From: a virus
Direction: 5' to 3' (one strand)
DNA: 37,462 nucleotides
IMG/VR virus record: IMGVR_UViG_3300027825_000006
Span: 1 to 37,462 of that record
The translations under genes were made by a program, and so were the position numbers. Positions 9,206 through 26,806 of this stretch are shown here, in pieces (within the stretch, counting starts at the first letter, position 1; the number at the start of each line of letters is the position of its first letter). Under the pieces are notes generated by a model. The model saw only the letters and a program-made list of their open reading frames with translations, searched no databases and had not been told where the DNA came from.

Positions 9206-9498
9206 ATGTCGATCACAACAACGAGCGTTCTGCCAGCTCCAGTGCAGCAGACCTTCTCCTTCAAGTTGCTGTCGGTTCCCGTCCCCTACATGATCCACAA
9301 AATACCTGCGGATCTCAAAGCGATGCCCCGTAATGGCGGTATAGCGCTTCGTATGAGACGTTATAACCCACTGGCAACTGCCCCTGTTCCCCTTGGAAAT
9401 AGTGGAATTACACCACCTCCGCAACAATTGACTGCGGTCAATATTGATGCACAGATGGATTTTTACGGTTCTAGCCAAGTAACTGATTATCAAATGGT
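9206..9498 (+). CDS. Major capsid protein, exon 1
   Basis: First exon of the split coat-protein gene (about 98 residues). It begins MSITTTSVLPAPVQQTF; GAIALRMRR-like sequence (GGIALRMRRYNPLATA) and IDAQMDFYGSSQVTDYQM follow, matching the N-terminal arm and E-loop region of N4-gp56-like HK97-fold coat proteins. In genomic reading it hits a stop at 9503, far too early for a coat protein. The missing part is found in exon 2 at 10240. Joined, the junction reads DYQM-V-TLQNQDPVLNEAAQ and gives 317 residues. AGGA is 7 nt before the start. Confidence 0.85.
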
Positions 9499-10239
9499 TG
9501 CATAATGTGCCGTAACAAGTTGAGCATTGGCATGACATACATATTGCTCAACGAGCAGGTAGACAGAATTGCCTGCTTTAAACCGTTTCTAATATACCGA
9601 GAAACCCTAAATGTGTTACCATCATGGTATTCAAACCAAGAGGTAATATGTACGGCAACTCGAAGGAAGCAGCAATGGGCTATGTAGCTGGGATAATTGA
9701 TGGAGAGGGTGCGATATTTATTACGCACGATTACTTCATTCATAAAAATCCTGTGCATAGACTCGAAATAAGAATTGGAATGATACATAAAGAAGCATTG
9801 GATTTTTTAGTGAAAACTTTGAATGTTGGAAAGGTTGTTTTAGAAAAATCTTATGCAAACAAAAGACCTATGTATCGTTTAGTTTATCAAAACCGAGATG
9901 ATATAAGAAATGTTCTCGATCAGATTTATCCTTATTTATTAGTTAAGAAACAACAAGCAGATATAGCTTACGAATTTTTAGATAAAGCATTGGGTCAAAG
10001 AGGCCGATGGTTATCCGAAGAAAAAAAAGAAATTCGAAAGAATTTATATATCCGCATGAGAGAGCTTAACGGAATTGCCGCACCTGCAACGACTGAACGA
10101 AATGGCAAGCGCGGACGTAGTAGAAGCGTCCGTCTTGAAGCAACAGTCTAAACTCACAGGAAACTGTGAGAGGATGGGTCGAAGCACCCGTCCCGCCAGA
10201 AATGGTCAGTAGGGAGAGAAACCCGAAAGTAATAGTCTG
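9499..10239 (+). ncRNA. Group I intron in the major capsid gene
   Basis: A 741 nt insertion splitting the coat gene in frame. Exon end ATGGT (9494-9498) can pair with GCCGT (9509-9513), ending in the required U-G pair (P1). TTGAGCA...TGCTCAA forms P2. GACTG (10091-10095, inside a GCAACGACTGAACG R-like element) pairs with CAGTC (10144-10148), a likely P7. P9 is CTCACAG-GAAA-CTGTGAG (10153-10170), and a further hairpin spans 10172-10193. The intron would end at G10239. An in-frame alternative is 9500-10246. Folding was done by eye; P3-P6 and P8 are not fully assigned. Confidence 0.8.
9648..10151 (+). CDS. LAGLIDADG homing endonuclease (intron-encoded)
   Basis: A 167-residue protein with one LAGLIDADG motif, GYVAGIIDGEGAIF (residues about 11-24), where the acidic residue near its end coordinates the catalytic metal. 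A single motif means it should act as a homodimer and cut an intronless copy of the capsid gene to spread the intron. AAGAGG 4 nt before the ATG at 9648 decides the start over the longer 9624 frame. The C-terminal basic tail (NGKRGRSRSVRL) is encoded by the intron core, and its TAA follows the P7 3' strand directly. The codon usage is A/T-richer than the capsid exons, as expected for an invading element. Confidence 0.9.
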   Translation: MYGNSKEAAMGYVAGIIDGEGAIFITHDYFIHKNPVHRLEIRIGMIHKEALDFLVKTLNVGKVVLEKSYANKRPMYRLVYQNRDDIRNVLDQIYPYLLVKKQQADIAYEFLDKALGQRGRWLSEEKKEIRKNLYIRMRELNGIAAPATTERNGKRGRSRSVRLEATV

Positions 10240-10900
10240 AACTCTGCAGAACCAAGACCCAGTTCTGAACGAAGCGGCTCAACGTCTCGGCGTTTCCCTT
10301 CGTCAAACTGAAGACCAGTTGATGAGCTCAATGCTCGCTTCAACTGCCTCTTTCATTAACTGCGTGGGTGGTGCTAACGGTGACAACCCAACTGAAATTT
10401 CACGTTCGGACGTGGATACAGTGGTTCGTACCCTCCGCGGAAACAACGCTTACAGCTTCTTAACAGGAGTTGAAGGTGAAGACCGCTTTGGTACCGCTCC
10501 AGTTCGTGATGCCTACTTCGGCCTTGGCCATACCGACCTCATTGGTCAGTTGGACAACGTTCAAGGTTTCATCCAAAAGTGGAACTATCCCAACCAACAA
10601 TCCACGCTCGATGCCGAGTGGGGAACTGTGGCTAATATTCGCTTCTTGCTCTCCTCTATTGGAAGCATTTCCGCGAACGCCTCATTGCTAGGTGCTAACG
10701 TTTATAACATCTTCTGCGTAGGTAGAGAGGCTTATGCCGCTATTGAGCAAGATGGCTATAGCGCTCAATTCATCTATCGTCCGCCAATCTATGATTCACC
10801 ATTAGCCCTCAACGCTTCTGTTGGATACAAGTTTGCAGAAGTTCCAAGAATCACCAACGACACGTGGGTATTTAACCTACGATGCACATTAACAGCTTAA
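10240..10900 (+). CDS. Major capsid protein, exon 2
   Basis: Second exon, about 219 residues, continuing the HK97-fold coat protein. In frame upstream of any start codon the sequence TLQNQDPVLNEAAQRLG is already coat protein, showing that the gene does not begin at the TTG near 10319. Other family features: RQTEDQLMSSMLASTASFIN, DVDTVVRTLRGNNAY, GTAPVRDAYFGLGHTDLIGQ and, at the C-terminus, SVGYKFAEVPRITNDTWVF. About 415-420 copies would form the shell if T=7 as in related podoviruses; that is assumption. AAGGAGAT and the next gene follow 10 bp later. Confidence 0.88.
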
Positions 10901-18129: not shown

Positions 18130-18201
18130 TGCTGACGAAAGGACTTGAACCCTCAACCGTCCGCTTACAAGGCGGATGCTCTACCATTGAGCTACATCAG
18201 C
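18130..18201 (-). tRNA. tRNA-Thr (anticodon UGU)
   Basis: A 72 nt cloverleaf read on the minus strand: acceptor GCTGATG/CGTCAGC (one G-T), D arm GCTC/GAGC, anticodon stem TCCGC/GCGGA with loop CTTGTAA (anticodon TGT), variable loop CGGTT, T arm GAGGG/CCTTT around TTCAAGT, discriminator A. CCA is not encoded. It starts 7 bp after the stop of the ParB-like gene, so it is probably cut from the same transcript. Confidence 0.93.
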
Positions 18202-18208
18202 TGATACC

Positions 18209-18946
18209 CTACTTATCTGCTAATGGCTTTTGGTTTTTCCAGTTATAGATTTTCTTCAACATATCATAATATTCAGCCTGAGTGCCACACAAATGGAGAC
18301 TTTCCAAACGGTACTGAAGTTTTGAAAGAAAAGTTTTGAAATCAGTATCTTTGAGCATAAGAATTTGCATGAGAGAGTCACAGAATCGACCCACTGAGGT
18401 AATTTCTTGGCCTTTGAATTTTTTTGTTTTGATAAGATAAATCGTTTCCCTGTAGTTATCCAAGATTTTTACGACTCTTTTCATTTCTTCGTCCGAAGGA
18501 AATTTAAAATTCCCCAGTCTAAAATCTCTACAAGGATTTGCAGCTCTCCAGAGCATTAAACGCAGTCCATTGCGAAGTGAAATCTCTTGCTCTTCGATAA
18601 ATTCTTCAAATCGAATGTAATCTTCATTTCCCGCGGAAATATAATGTTTCATGAAGTCTTCCAATTTCCACGGATTTTGATGGAGATTGAATAGCAAAAT
18701 GTCCGAAGGCTTAGCATTTTCGTCTATGACGTAGGTGACTTCTAACCCTAGTTGTTTTGCGGCTTCTAAACGGTTCTGCCCGTCAATAATCCTCATGTGC
18801 TTATCGACAATGATAGGCACAAAAGATAGTTTATCAGACTGAGTTAAAGATCTTTCTACTCTTGCAACGTTATTTTCTTTAACATCTCTGTTATACTTTG
18901 TGTATTTGAAAATACTATAATCTTTTGTTGTTCTGAATTCTGGCAT
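18209..18946 (-). CDS. ParB/Srx-fold protein, phage type
   Basis: A 245-residue protein with a ParB N-terminal-like domain: VPIIVDKHMRIIDGQNRLEA followed by AKQLGLEVTYV (residues about 42-75). In ParB this box binds a nucleotide; phage members of the fold include nucleases and regulators. The C-terminal 150 residues are helical and not recognised; no typical HTH is obvious. AGGAG is 6-7 nt before the ATG. It lies leftward inside the rightward tail region, with tRNA-Thr right behind it, as an inserted two-gene unit. A partition role is doubtful because no ParA is present; a regulatory or nicking role is possible. Confidence 0.75.
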   Translation of the reverse strand: MPEFRTTKDYSIFKYTKYNRDVKENNVARVERSLTQSDKLSFVPIIVDKHMRIIDGQNRLEAAKQLGLEVTYVIDENAKPSDILLFNLHQNPWKLEDFMKHYISAGNEDYIRFEEFIEEQEISLRNGLRLMLWRAANPCRDFRLGNFKFPSDEEMKRVVKILDNYRETIYLIKTKKFKGQEITSVGRFCDSLMQILMLKDTDFKTFLSKLQYRLESLHLCGTQAEYYDMLKKIYNWKNQKPLADK

Positions 18947-24202: not shown

Positions 24203-26806
24203 ATGCCATCAAAGCTAAGACCTGGCGCTGAGAGCCTTTACGGTTTCCCGCAGCCAAGTCAATCAAATCTTTTAGCACCATTAATCGCAAAACGAGATCC
24301 CACATCTGCTGATACCGGTTACCCAATTGGGCTGATATGGATCAATAAAGTTGGCAATACAGTTAACATCCTTTCATCTGTTGCAGGTGGATTAGCTAAC
24401 TATGTTTCCGTCAATGCTGGCTCTGGAAGTGTAAACTCTATCAACAGTTTGGCCCCTAGCGGTGGTAATATTACAATTGCAGGAACCGCAAGCCAACTTA
24501 GCGTTGGAAATGCTGGAAGCACAGTAACTCTAAGCCTTCCCGCTACAATCACAACACCAGGAAGCCTAACTACAAGTGGAGCTTTGACAGCAGGCGGTGC
24601 ATTTACAGCCTCTGCTGGAGCTACCATCACAGGTGGATTGACAACAGATACTCTAGTAGTCACAGGTAACTTCACTATTGGGGGAAGCCCTGGAGATATC
24701 GTTACTATCGGTAACACTGGCGGAGCAACAGCGGTAACGATTTCAGTCGGTACTGGAAATCTCGCCATTACTGGCGCTGCTACTTCTACAATGACAATGG
24801 GAACTGGATTAACCACAGGAACCATTCTGATAGGTGGAACTGCTCAAACAGGAACTATTACTCTTGGGTCATCTTCTGGAACGAATACAGTAGCTATTGG
24901 TGATGGAGCTGGAGCCACAACAGTCAATATCGCAAATGGTGTGACTGGTAATACAGTTGCAATTGCCAACGGAGTAAACACTTCAACTCAAACTGTCAAT
25001 ATCGCTTCAGGCGCTTGCGCAGCTAGTTCAACTGTTAACATTCAAGCAGGCATCGCAACATCTGGAACACAGACAGTTAATATCGCAACAGGTGCTTCTG
25101 CTAGCACAACTAACATCGGTAACATCACAGGAACTAGTGGAATCGTTGCTCTAGTAGGTACAGGAAATTTCTCTCTTGATGGTGCTGCAACTTCGACTTA
25201 TGCAATTGGACCTTCTACTACTTCAGGCACTATTACAATCGGCGGAACAGCGCAAAGTACAGGTGTCATTACATTAGGGTCTTCTAGTGCAACATCCACT
25301 GTAAAAATAGCTTCTGGTGCGGGTGCTTCTACGGTAACGATTGCCGAAGGAACAGCAGCCGCTAATACTGTAAGCATCTTGAATGGTGCTACAGCTGCTA
25401 CAGGAACTGTCAATATTTTAAGCGGCATTGGATCTGCTGGCGGTGGCGCATTACATATGGCTAATAACACCAGAGTAACAGCTATCGATTTAGGGAACAT
25501 TGCTCCTGCTGCTACTCGAACTACCGTGATTTGCGGAGGAAACCAAGCCCAAAATGATACGGTAAGTATCCTCAACGGCAATGCAACAGCTAATACACAG
25601 ACCTTTAATCTTCTATCTGGTGTTGGTTCAGGAACTCATACAAAAGCTGTCAACATCTGTAATACTACAATGTCTGCCGGTACAGCTACAGTCAACATCA
25701 TGAGTGCAACTGCAACAGGTGGAACTCTTGCGGTTAATATTGTTGGAGATTCAGCAAGCACTACAGCAGTAACTACAAAATTGTGTACAGGACCTGCGGC
25801 TCATACTCTAACAATTGGTGATAGCACAGGAAATGGTGGCTTAATTGCAATCAACGCCGGCGCAGGAAATTTCCAATTAAATGCTGGAGCAGCTGGCGCG
25901 ACAATGTCAATTGGATCAGCTACTCAAACGGGTGCGATTACATTAGGAGCTTCAACAGCTGGACAAACAGTCAATATTTCAAGTGCTGCAAGTATTGCAG
26001 GTACAAATGCTGTTAACATCCTCGCTGGAGCTACTCCAGCGGCTAACCAAACCTTGAGTATTATGACAGGTGTTGGAACTGCTGGAACCTATGCTGTTAA
26101 TATTCTGACAGGAAATTCCACAGGAACAACACAATCCGTAAGTATCGGAACGGGTTCTGCTCGTACAGACTTTACAGTAGGTGGAACAGGAGCCAATGTA
26201 ATTGCAATCGGAAATACTCAGACTGCCGGAAGCCTTTCTATCGGTGCTGCGATGACTAGCGGTACAATTTCTATTGGTGGAACCGGTCTACAAGTCGGGA
26301 ATTTCGACTTAGCTCCAGGAACTGGAGCTCAAGCAGTAACTCTTGCTAATGGTGGAACAGGTGTAAAAACCGTATCTATCGCTACGGCAGCTGTTGCTAA
26401 CGTTGTCACAATCGGAAGCACGACAGCTTCTGCTTCTACAACAATACAAGCTGGAAGTGGTACTACAGGATTGAAGTTCAGCGCAGGTGGAAACGTTCAA
26501 ATGGTTCCTGCGATAGTAAGCGCAGCGGCTCTGACAGTAGTTAACAACGCCCGCGTAGGACAAGCCGTCTTCACAGGCCAAACCACTGCTAACGGCTCTA
26601 CAGATGTTTATACAATTACTAATAGCGTCATAAGCGGAACCACACAAGCGATCCTTCTGACTTGCGACAATTTAGGAAGCAATGACGCACAAATGACAAT
26701 CACTAGAATTAAACAATCTGCCGGATCAATTGCAGTATCTTTGAAAAACAATGGTGCTGCTGCTCTTAACGGTGATGTTCATTTAACATTCTGGATATTG
26801 AACTAA
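24203..26806 (+). CDS. Long repeat fibre protein (beta-solenoid-like)
   Basis: An 867-residue protein, extremely rich in G, T, A, S and I. After an N-terminal part (RDPTSADTGYPIGLIWINKV, a phrase also present at the start of the 630-residue fibre as AIGVIWINV) about 600 residues consist of short imperfect repeats of the types GTITIGGTAQTG, TLGSSSGTNTV and TVNIASGA. Regular strands of four or five residues separated by small turns suggest a beta-solenoid or triple-stranded fibre shaft. The last 100 residues (TNSVISGTTQAILLTCDNLG, ALNGDVHLTFWILN) form a distinct terminal domain, possibly receptor binding or trimerisation. First gene of the fibre operon. Confidence 0.75.
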   Translation: MPSKLRPGAESLYGFPQPSQSNLLAPLIAKRDPTSADTGYPIGLIWINKVGNTVNILSSVAGGLANYVSVNAGSGSVNSINSLAPSGGNITIAGTASQLSVGNAGSTVTLSLPATITTPGSLTTSGALTAGGAFTASAGATITGGLTTDTLVVTGNFTIGGSPGDIVTIGNTGGATAVTISVGTGNLAITGAATSTMTMGTGLTTGTILIGGTAQTGTITLGSSSGTNTVAIGDGAGATTVNIANGVTGNTVAIANGVNTSTQTVNIASGACAASSTVNIQAGIATSGTQTVNIATGASASTTNIGNITGTSGIVALVGTGNFSLDGAATSTYAIGPSTTSGTITIGGTAQSTGVITLGSSSATSTVKIASGAGASTVTIAEGTAAANTVSILNGATAATGTVNILSGIGSAGGGALHMANNTRVTAIDLGNIAPAATRTTVICGGNQAQNDTVSILNGNATANTQTFNLLSGVGSGTHTKAVNICNTTMSAGTATVNIMSATATGGTLAVNIVGDSASTTAVTTKLCTGPAAHTLTIGDSTGNGGLIAINAGAGNFQLNAGAAGATMSIGSATQTGAITLGASTAGQTVNISSAASIAGTNAVNILAGATPAANQTLSIMTGVGTAGTYAVNILTGNSTGTTQSVSIGTGSARTDFTVGGTGANVIAIGNTQTAGSLSIGAAMTSGTISIGGTGLQVGNFDLAPGTGAQAVTLANGGTGVKTVSIATAAVANVVTIGSTTASASTTIQAGSGTTGLKFSAGGNVQMVPAIVSAAALTVVNNARVGQAVFTGQTTANGSTDVYTITNSVISGTTQAILLTCDNLGSNDAQMTITRIKQSAGSIAVSLKNNGAAALNGDVHLTFWILN

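What the first reader, a model, noticed from the sequence alone, without database searches (positions are those of the whole stretch)
9206..10900. Major capsid gene interrupted by a group I intron with a LAGLIDADG endonuclease
Exon 1 ends in a stop inside the E-loop region. Exon 2 is already coat protein (TLQNQDPVLNEAAQ) upstream of every start codon. Removal of 9499-10239 restores one frame of 317 residues. P1, P2, P7 and P9 can be drawn by eye, and the insertion encodes a one-motif LAGLIDADG enzyme. Introns in phage genes are known (T4 td, nrdD; Twort; some capsid or terminase genes), but one in the most abundant virion gene makes particle yield depend on RNA splicing, so it would be a control point.
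Basis: partly seen in the sequence, partly recalled or inferred. Interest (0 to 1): 0.85.

Follow-up and report, generated by a model that had tools for sequence, protein, structure and literature searches.

The report
Core-less mini-intron beside a group I intron
The phage's coat gene is cut not once but twice, by an ordinary self-splicing intron and, just before it, by a tiny 65-base intron that has no enzyme of its own and seems to be removed by its neighbour's RNA enzyme; the same arrangement recurs in 86 other phage genes.

Summary
Correct anatomy: exon 1 9206-9469; 65-nt mini-intron 9470-9534; 26-nt mini-exon 9535-9560; group I intron 9561-10239 with the endonuclease; exon 3 10240-10900. 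The joined frame then matches relatives without a gap. The mini-intron has group I splice-site marks (P1 with U.G, P10, final G) but cannot hold a catalytic core. Scans found 87 distinct mini-introns (28-65 nt) at this codon. All 86 that can be judged are followed at once by the P1 of a group I intron, at four different sites. P10 and a new "bridge" helix covary, and the bridge ends 8-9 nt before the next 5' splice site whether the mini-exon is 26, 48, 50 or 86 nt. Best explanation: the mini-intron is a core-less substrate removed by the neighbouring ribozyme. The gene is a hotspot (about 20 insertion sites, up to five introns). Splicing itself is not shown; a capsid intron with an endonuclease is already known (mycobacteriophage LittleE).

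The parts
9206..9469 (+). Exon 1 of the major capsid gene (ends ...GAT TTT TAC GGT, DFYG)
9470..9534 (+). Core-less mini-intron C (65 nt), ends in G
   Evidence: 86 further distinct mini-introns of 28-65 nt at the same codon
9464..9469 (+). P1 of mini-intron, exon strand UACGGU (U at the splice site)
   Evidence: Present in 86 of 87 mini-intron loci, CACGGU in one
9509..9514 (+). P1 of mini-intron, internal guide GCCGUA (G opposite the splice-site U)
9505..9508 (+). P10 strand AUGU, pairs with ACAU at the start of the mini-exon (9535-9538)
   Evidence: P10 sum 63 vs permuted 37.6, 0/20000, slid 0-3; 400 vs 293, 0/5000 in 87 loci
9503..9505 (+). First in-frame stop when unspliced RNA is read; tail ...QMVA-stop
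9519..9526 (+). Bridge helix, mini-intron strand GUUGAGCA
9545..9552 (+). Bridge helix, mini-exon strand UGCUCAAC; ends 8 nt before the next 5' splice site
9535..9560 (+). Mini-exon, 26 nt (TYILLNEQV with the next base)
   Evidence: Same block in every uninterrupted relative
9561..10239 (+). Group I intron B, 679 nt, ends in G. P1 GCAGGU 9555-9560/GCCUGC 9571-9576; P3 9583-9589/10099-10105; P7 10091-10095/10144-10148; P8 10111-10117/10127-10133; P9 10153-10170
   Evidence: relatives' cores covary
9624..10151 (+). Single-motif LAGLIDADG homing endonuclease gene (175 aa) inside intron B; its ends overlap core strands
   Evidence: AF2 pLDDT 77.5; Foldseek I-CvuI 6e-9, I-CreI 2e-8; Pfam LAGLIDADG_1 only E 0.013
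10240..10900 (+). Exon 3 of the major capsid gene (A ACT CTG ... to the stop)

Best explanation
The capsid gene carries two introns that share one ribozyme. Intron B (9561-10239) is an ordinary mobile group I intron. The 65-nt mini-intron just upstream (9470-9534) keeps only what a group I ribozyme must recognise: a 5' splice site paired in P1 with its own guide, a P10 guide for the next exon, and a final G. The mini-intron's 3' part pairs with the mini-exon (bridge helix), which sets its P1 and 3' splice site next to the P1 and core of intron B. The core of B would first splice exon 1 to the mini-exon, then remove itself. Shown by comparison: exon structure, P1, P10, bridge, adjacency, intact cores. 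Inferred: splicing, order, and that the neighbour's core does it in cis. The pair probably spreads as one cassette with the endonuclease.
For: (1) Removing 9470-9534 and 9561-10239 gives a capsid protein 94% identical to uninterrupted relatives over 315 residues without gaps. (2) 87 distinct mini-introns, 28-65 nt, all at the same codon. (3) Adjacency: 86 of 86 assessable are followed by P1 plus guide of a group I intron at codon 97, 104, 105 or 117; the scan pattern did not ask for this. The codon-97 intron was never found without the mini-intron; codon-104 introns without it exist. (4) P10 covaries: one position has all four Watson-Crick types; permutations 0/20000 and 0/5000, slides near zero. 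(5) The bridge ends 8 nt (codons 97, 105, 117) or 9 nt (104) before the next 5' splice site although mini-exons are 26, 48, 50 or 86 nt; fixed-register pairs 7.8, 8.6, 8.8 and 6.7 of 9 against mostly 3-5 when slid. (6) Class-97 covariation 0.341 vs 0.100 shuffled, 0/500; slides at most 0.093. (7) Neighbouring introns have real cores: P3, P4, P5, P6, P8 and the P7 pseudoknot 99.6% paired, covariation 0.63 vs 0.20; the model hits the neighbouring intron in each mini-intron locus tested, weakly in L086 and in the window. (8) L098 has a normal-size group I intron ending at the mini-intron's 3' site, so mini-introns may be its reduced remains.
Against: No RNA was seen; all is comparative. Group I ribozymes are not known in nature to serve a core-less neighbour (established knowledge plus limited searches). 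The 3' splice site would lie upstream of the core, an unusual topology. The window's own core scores weakly: 11.8 bits with the home-made model, 24.6 bits with RF00028, because the endonuclease gene splits it; Rfam missed the relatives' introns too. In class 117 (4 loci) the helix does not vary enough to test, and in class 104 the permutation is weaker (152/5000 in fixed register).
Confidence: 0.8

Rival explanations
1. The 65-nt piece is not spliced but skipped by ribosomes (translational bypassing, as in T4 gene 60) or by another recoding trick.
For: Short non-coding gap in a phage gene with a stop early in the gap; hairpins present.
Against: No matching take-off and landing codons (GGT versus ATG, TTG, CTG, AAG). 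P1 with U.G at the junction, the final G and P10 covariation are splicing marks and have no role in bypassing. It does not explain why a group I intron always follows.
Confidence: 0.04
2. A single intron is removed from the mini-intron's 5' site to intron B's 3' site and the mini-exon is lost (exon skipping, as in Twort orf142).
For: Group I exon skipping over short exons of 23 and 34 nt is documented (PMC10136302). In class 104 skipping would stay in frame.
Against: In the window and the other codon-97 genes skipping breaks the frame (phase 0 joined to phase 2). The guide's P10 fits the mini-exon (63 pairs) far better than the exon after the second intron (23). The block is kept in every uninterrupted relative.
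Confidence: 0.05
3. The mini-intron is spliced by a group I core acting in trans (a freed intron) or by a host or phage protein, and the adjacency only reflects joint inheritance.
For: Engineered trans-acting spliceozymes remove 64-100 nt introns (PMC4094466). The cassette probably moves as a unit: 13 changes on the capsid tree for 14 mini-intron rows.
Against: The bridge register relative to the next P1 is kept across four different next-intron sites, which a trans mechanism would not need.
Confidence: 0.1
4. One reading: one group I intron 9499-10239.
For: Gives an open frame of 317 residues.
Against: Leaves nine residues found in none of the 33 uninterrupted relatives and discards the conserved block.
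Confidence: 0.01

Closest known systems
Group I self-splicing introns (Rfam RF00028)
   Same: Intron B: P1 with U.G, P3-P9, P7 pseudoknot, final G. Mini-intron: P1, P10 and final G only.
   Different: The mini-intron has no P3-P8 core and is 28-65 nt; its partner helix is made with the following exon.
Mycobacteriophage LittleE capsid intron (PMC3706429)
   Same: A group I type intron with a LAGLIDADG gene in the major capsid gene
   Different: One intron, LAGLIDADG gene on the opposite strand, no core-less neighbour reported
Twort orf142 and Coxiella 23S rRNA tandem group I introns (as described in PMC10136302)
   Same: Two group I splicing units around a short exon (23 and 34 nt)
   Different: There both introns have cores and exon skipping occurs; here the first has none and inclusion is needed
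Spliceozymes (engineered, PMC4094466)
   Same: A group I core removes an intron that has no ribozyme of its own (64-100 nt)
   Different: Artificial and acting in trans; here natural and apparently in cis
Euglenoid group III introns and spliceosomal introns (from general knowledge)
   Same: Small introns that lost their catalytic core and depend on one supplied from elsewhere
   Different: Derived from group II, not group I

Membership tests
Group I intron (intron B, 9561-10239) | P1 with U.G at the 5' splice site and final G | tested here: met
   GCAGGU/GCCUGC, G10239
Group I intron (intron B, 9561-10239) | Conserved core P3-P8 with P7 pseudoknot | tested here: met
   P3, P7, P8, P9 found in the window, RF00028 24.6 bits, below gathering; 18 related introns covary strongly
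Group I intron (intron B, 9561-10239) | Self-splicing activity | not testable with these tools
   No RNA data
Group I intron (mini-intron, 9470-9534) | P1 with U.G, P10, final G | tested here: met
Group I intron (mini-intron, 9470-9534) | Own catalytic core | tested here: not met
   28-65 nt long, no room for P3-P8; no model hit inside in the 13 other loci or in the window
LAGLIDADG homing endonuclease | LAGLIDADG fold | tested here: met
   Foldseek to I-CvuI 6e-9 and I-CreI 2e-8; Pfam models only below cut-off; PHROG names the family HNH
Translational bypassing element (T4 gene 60 type) | Matching take-off and landing codons | tested here: not met
ssrA-like C-terminal degron | Ends in Ala-Ala and is degraded by the host protease | tested here: inconclusive
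   Sequence met in 12 of 16 long mini-introns; tmRNA tags of two chlamydial MAGs end QAAA and LMAA; degradation not testable

The most novel reading that the evidence does not exclude
The mini-introns are a natural class of introns with no ribozyme of their own, recognised through P1, P10 and an exon-pairing bridge and removed by a neighbouring group I core: one ribozyme serving two introns, the group I counterpart of what group III and spliceosomal introns are to group II.
Probability: 0.72. Interest if true: 0.93.

Novelty: new variant of a known kind. Interest (0 to 1): 0.86.

Why it matters
All natural group I introns I know of carry their own catalytic core. If a core can serve a second, core-less intron next to it, group I introns could take the first step towards division of labour between substrate introns and a shared catalyst, a step so far argued for group II and the spliceosome. 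The smallest examples are 28 nt. It is testable in a test tube with a few hundred bases of RNA. It also shows a viral structural gene with up to five introns and means that gene callers and the standard Rfam model misread such genes. The Ala-stop ends suggest, separately, that some phage introns may tag products of unspliced RNA for destruction.

Tried and rejected
Bypassing and exon skipping: see rivals. Rfam RF00028 as arbiter: rings weakly in the window only in a narrow search and not at all at E<=1 in eight relatives, so an own model was built. An exact pattern for an ordinary 3' intron end joined to the site-C exon found nothing in the viral collection, but L098 has one with a slightly different end. 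Degron for all mini-introns: only the long class (>=50 nt) has it; mid-length 1/38 and short 0/33 end in AA, so it cannot be the general purpose. A chance explanation for AA-stop is unlikely in the first intron set: 19/57 in frame against 0/57 in each other frame, but part may follow from conserved P5 sequence in the full introns. Low-score alignments (L097, L099, L107, L109) and L066 were left out of the intron counts. GenBank phages have only distant capsid relatives, under 60% identity, so no isolate is at hand. Ten full-text searches found no description of core-less group I introns; the library holds only open-licence papers.

Full report
What the window is. The window is one IMG/VR virus record of 37,462 bases. 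Neighbours are portal (PF16510, E 4.6e-75) and SU10-type adaptor genes. The nearest cellular matches of the capsid protein lie in a Simkaniaceae MAG, a Parachlamydia MAG and a Methanomicrobiales bin, so the hosts are probably environmental chlamydiae (inference).

The coat gene is interrupted, and the insertion holds a group I intron with an endonuclease gene. A spliced alignment that only allows exons ending in T and introns ending in G gives two insertions, 9470-9534 (65 nt) and 9561-10239 (679 nt). The product is 94% identical to relatives L002 and L037 over 315 residues with no gap. No other copy of the gene is in the record. The closest intron-bearing relative, L174, matches the window at 87% over 1,212 gapless bases across both insertions.

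The larger insertion is a group I intron. Its P1 is GCAGGU/GCCUGC with U.G at the splice site, and it ends in G10239. P3, P7, P8 and P9 are in place around the endonuclease gene. RF00028 gives 24.6 bits, E 6e-4, in a search of the region alone, below the gathering score. Eighteen short introns (193-243 nt) from the same gene in related phages form a textbook core: P3, P4, P5, P6, P8 and the P7 pseudoknot are 99.6% paired, covariation 0.63 against 0.20 in shuffles, 0/500, and slid versions at most 0.14. A model of this core finds full introns throughout the family; in the window it sees both halves weakly, 11.8 and 8.6 bits, because the endonuclease gene splits the core. The endonuclease is an I-CreI-like LAGLIDADG enzyme by predicted structure.

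The smaller insertion is the surprise. It has P1 (UACGGU at 9464-9469 with guide GCCGUA at 9509-9514, U.G at the splice site), P10 (AUGU with ACAU of the next exon) and a final G, but no room for a core. Two pattern scans of the viral collection, plus two loci first met through a search for the neighbouring intron, give 87 distinct examples of 28 to 65 nt at exactly the same codon. The patterns fixed only the guide and the mini-exon. The exon end UACGGU (86 of 87; CACGGU in one) and the following intron were not asked for.

Evidence that it is spliced as a group I substrate. P10 pairing in the first 14 loci sums to 63 against 37.6 when guides and exons are permuted, 0/20000, and 0-3 when slid by one to three bases. 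In all 87 the sum is 400 against 293, 0/5000. One P10 position shows all four Watson-Crick types. The guide's P10 fits the mini-exon, not the exon after the second intron (63 against 23).

Evidence that it depends on its neighbour. Of 87 mini-introns, 86 are followed at once by the P1 and guide of a group I intron; the 87th contig ends there. The next intron sits at codon 97 (58 cases), 105 (17), 104 (6) or 117 (5). In every class the mini-intron's 3' part pairs with the mini-exon, starting about 3 nt after the guide and ending 8 nt (codons 97, 105, 117) or 9 nt (104) before the next 5' splice site, that is 2-3 nt before its P1. This holds although the mini-exon is 26, 50, 48 or 86 nt long, so different codons are used. 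In the commonest class the three helices reach 93.8% pairing and covariation 0.341 against 0.100 shuffled, 0/500, slides at most 0.093. The codon-97 intron was never seen without the mini-intron, while codon-104 introns without it exist (L065, L070, L075, L101, L105). L098 has a normal-size group I intron ending at the mini-intron's 3' site, which suggests that mini-introns are reduced forms of such an intron.

Mechanism proposed. The core of the downstream intron accepts two P1 helices in turn. First it takes the mini-intron's P1, held close by the bridge; the freed exon 1 attacks after the mini-intron's final G, which lies in the bridge's loop, and exon 1 is joined to the mini-exon. This breaks the bridge, the intron's own P1 then docks, and ordinary self-splicing follows. 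The RNA pairings, the adjacency and the intact cores are shown by comparison; splicing, its order and cis action are inferred. Engineered precedents exist: a Tetrahymena ribozyme that removes 64-100 nt introns in trans (PMC4094466), and tandem introns in which one intron is proposed to act on the other's splice sites (PMC10136302).

A hotspot gene. The capsid gene of this phage group has about 20 insertion sites and up to five introns (L128, L162). On the capsid tree the mini-intron label needs 13 changes for 14 rows, at least 8 forced by well-supported branches, as expected if the pair moves between phages by homing.

A possible second layer. Read without splicing, the first in-frame stop follows Ala-Ala in 19 of 57 introns of the first set and in 0 of 57 in either other frame. 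Both Ala codons vary at the third base, as selection on protein would leave. Among mini-introns, the long class ends in AA in 12 of 16 and in A in 15 of 16 (the window ends in VA), the others rarely. The 15 introns directly behind a mini-intron have none. The tmRNA tags of the Simkaniaceae and Parachlamydia MAGs end QAAA and LMAA. A degron on products of unspliced RNA is plausible but untested, and part of the signal in full introns may come from conserved P5 sequence.

What is known. Natural core-less introns served by a neighbouring group I core I could not find in the open-licence library. I file the pair as a new variant of group I splicing; the mini-intron alone works like a group I intron at its splice sites but fails the defining test of having a core.

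Noticed in passing
window 9470-9505; mini-introns and full introns of L063-L218: In-frame reading of unspliced RNA ends in Ala-Ala-stop far more often than chance (19/57 introns vs 0/57 in other frames; 12/16 long mini-introns), like an ssrA degron.
   Followed up: partly
L128, L162, L088, L094, L095 (capsid gene): Up to five introns in one 945-nt phage gene and about 20 different insertion sites, many with complete group I introns of only about 190-230 nt.
   Followed up: partly
L063-L095, window 9561-10239: Rfam RF00028 misses nearly all of these group I introns even at E<=1, so they are invisible to standard annotation.
   Followed up: partly
L079-L081, L112: Uninterrupted alleles that carry the exon sequence used by the cassette (TACGGT...CTCAACGAGCAGGT): possible homing targets or precisely cured alleles.
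   Followed up: no
L098, 1-647: A normal-size group I intron with an antisense endonuclease-like reading frame ends at the mini-intron's 3' site; a possible ancestor of the mini-introns.
   Followed up: partly
L063, L077, L082, L088, L095 (codon-104 introns): Codon-104 introns behind a mini-intron share a P1 loop TTTAAWAT with a potential P10 of up to 8 bp to GTATTAAA, longer than in codon-104 introns without a mini-intron.
   Followed up: no
window 18130-18201, - strand: tRNA-Thr (TGT) next to a ParB-like gene (18209-18946), 72.5 bits.
   Followed up: no
window 24203-26806: 867-aa protein of degenerate short repeats (TVNI/TITLG types), probably a tail fibre; three similar genes follow to 32734.
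   Followed up: no
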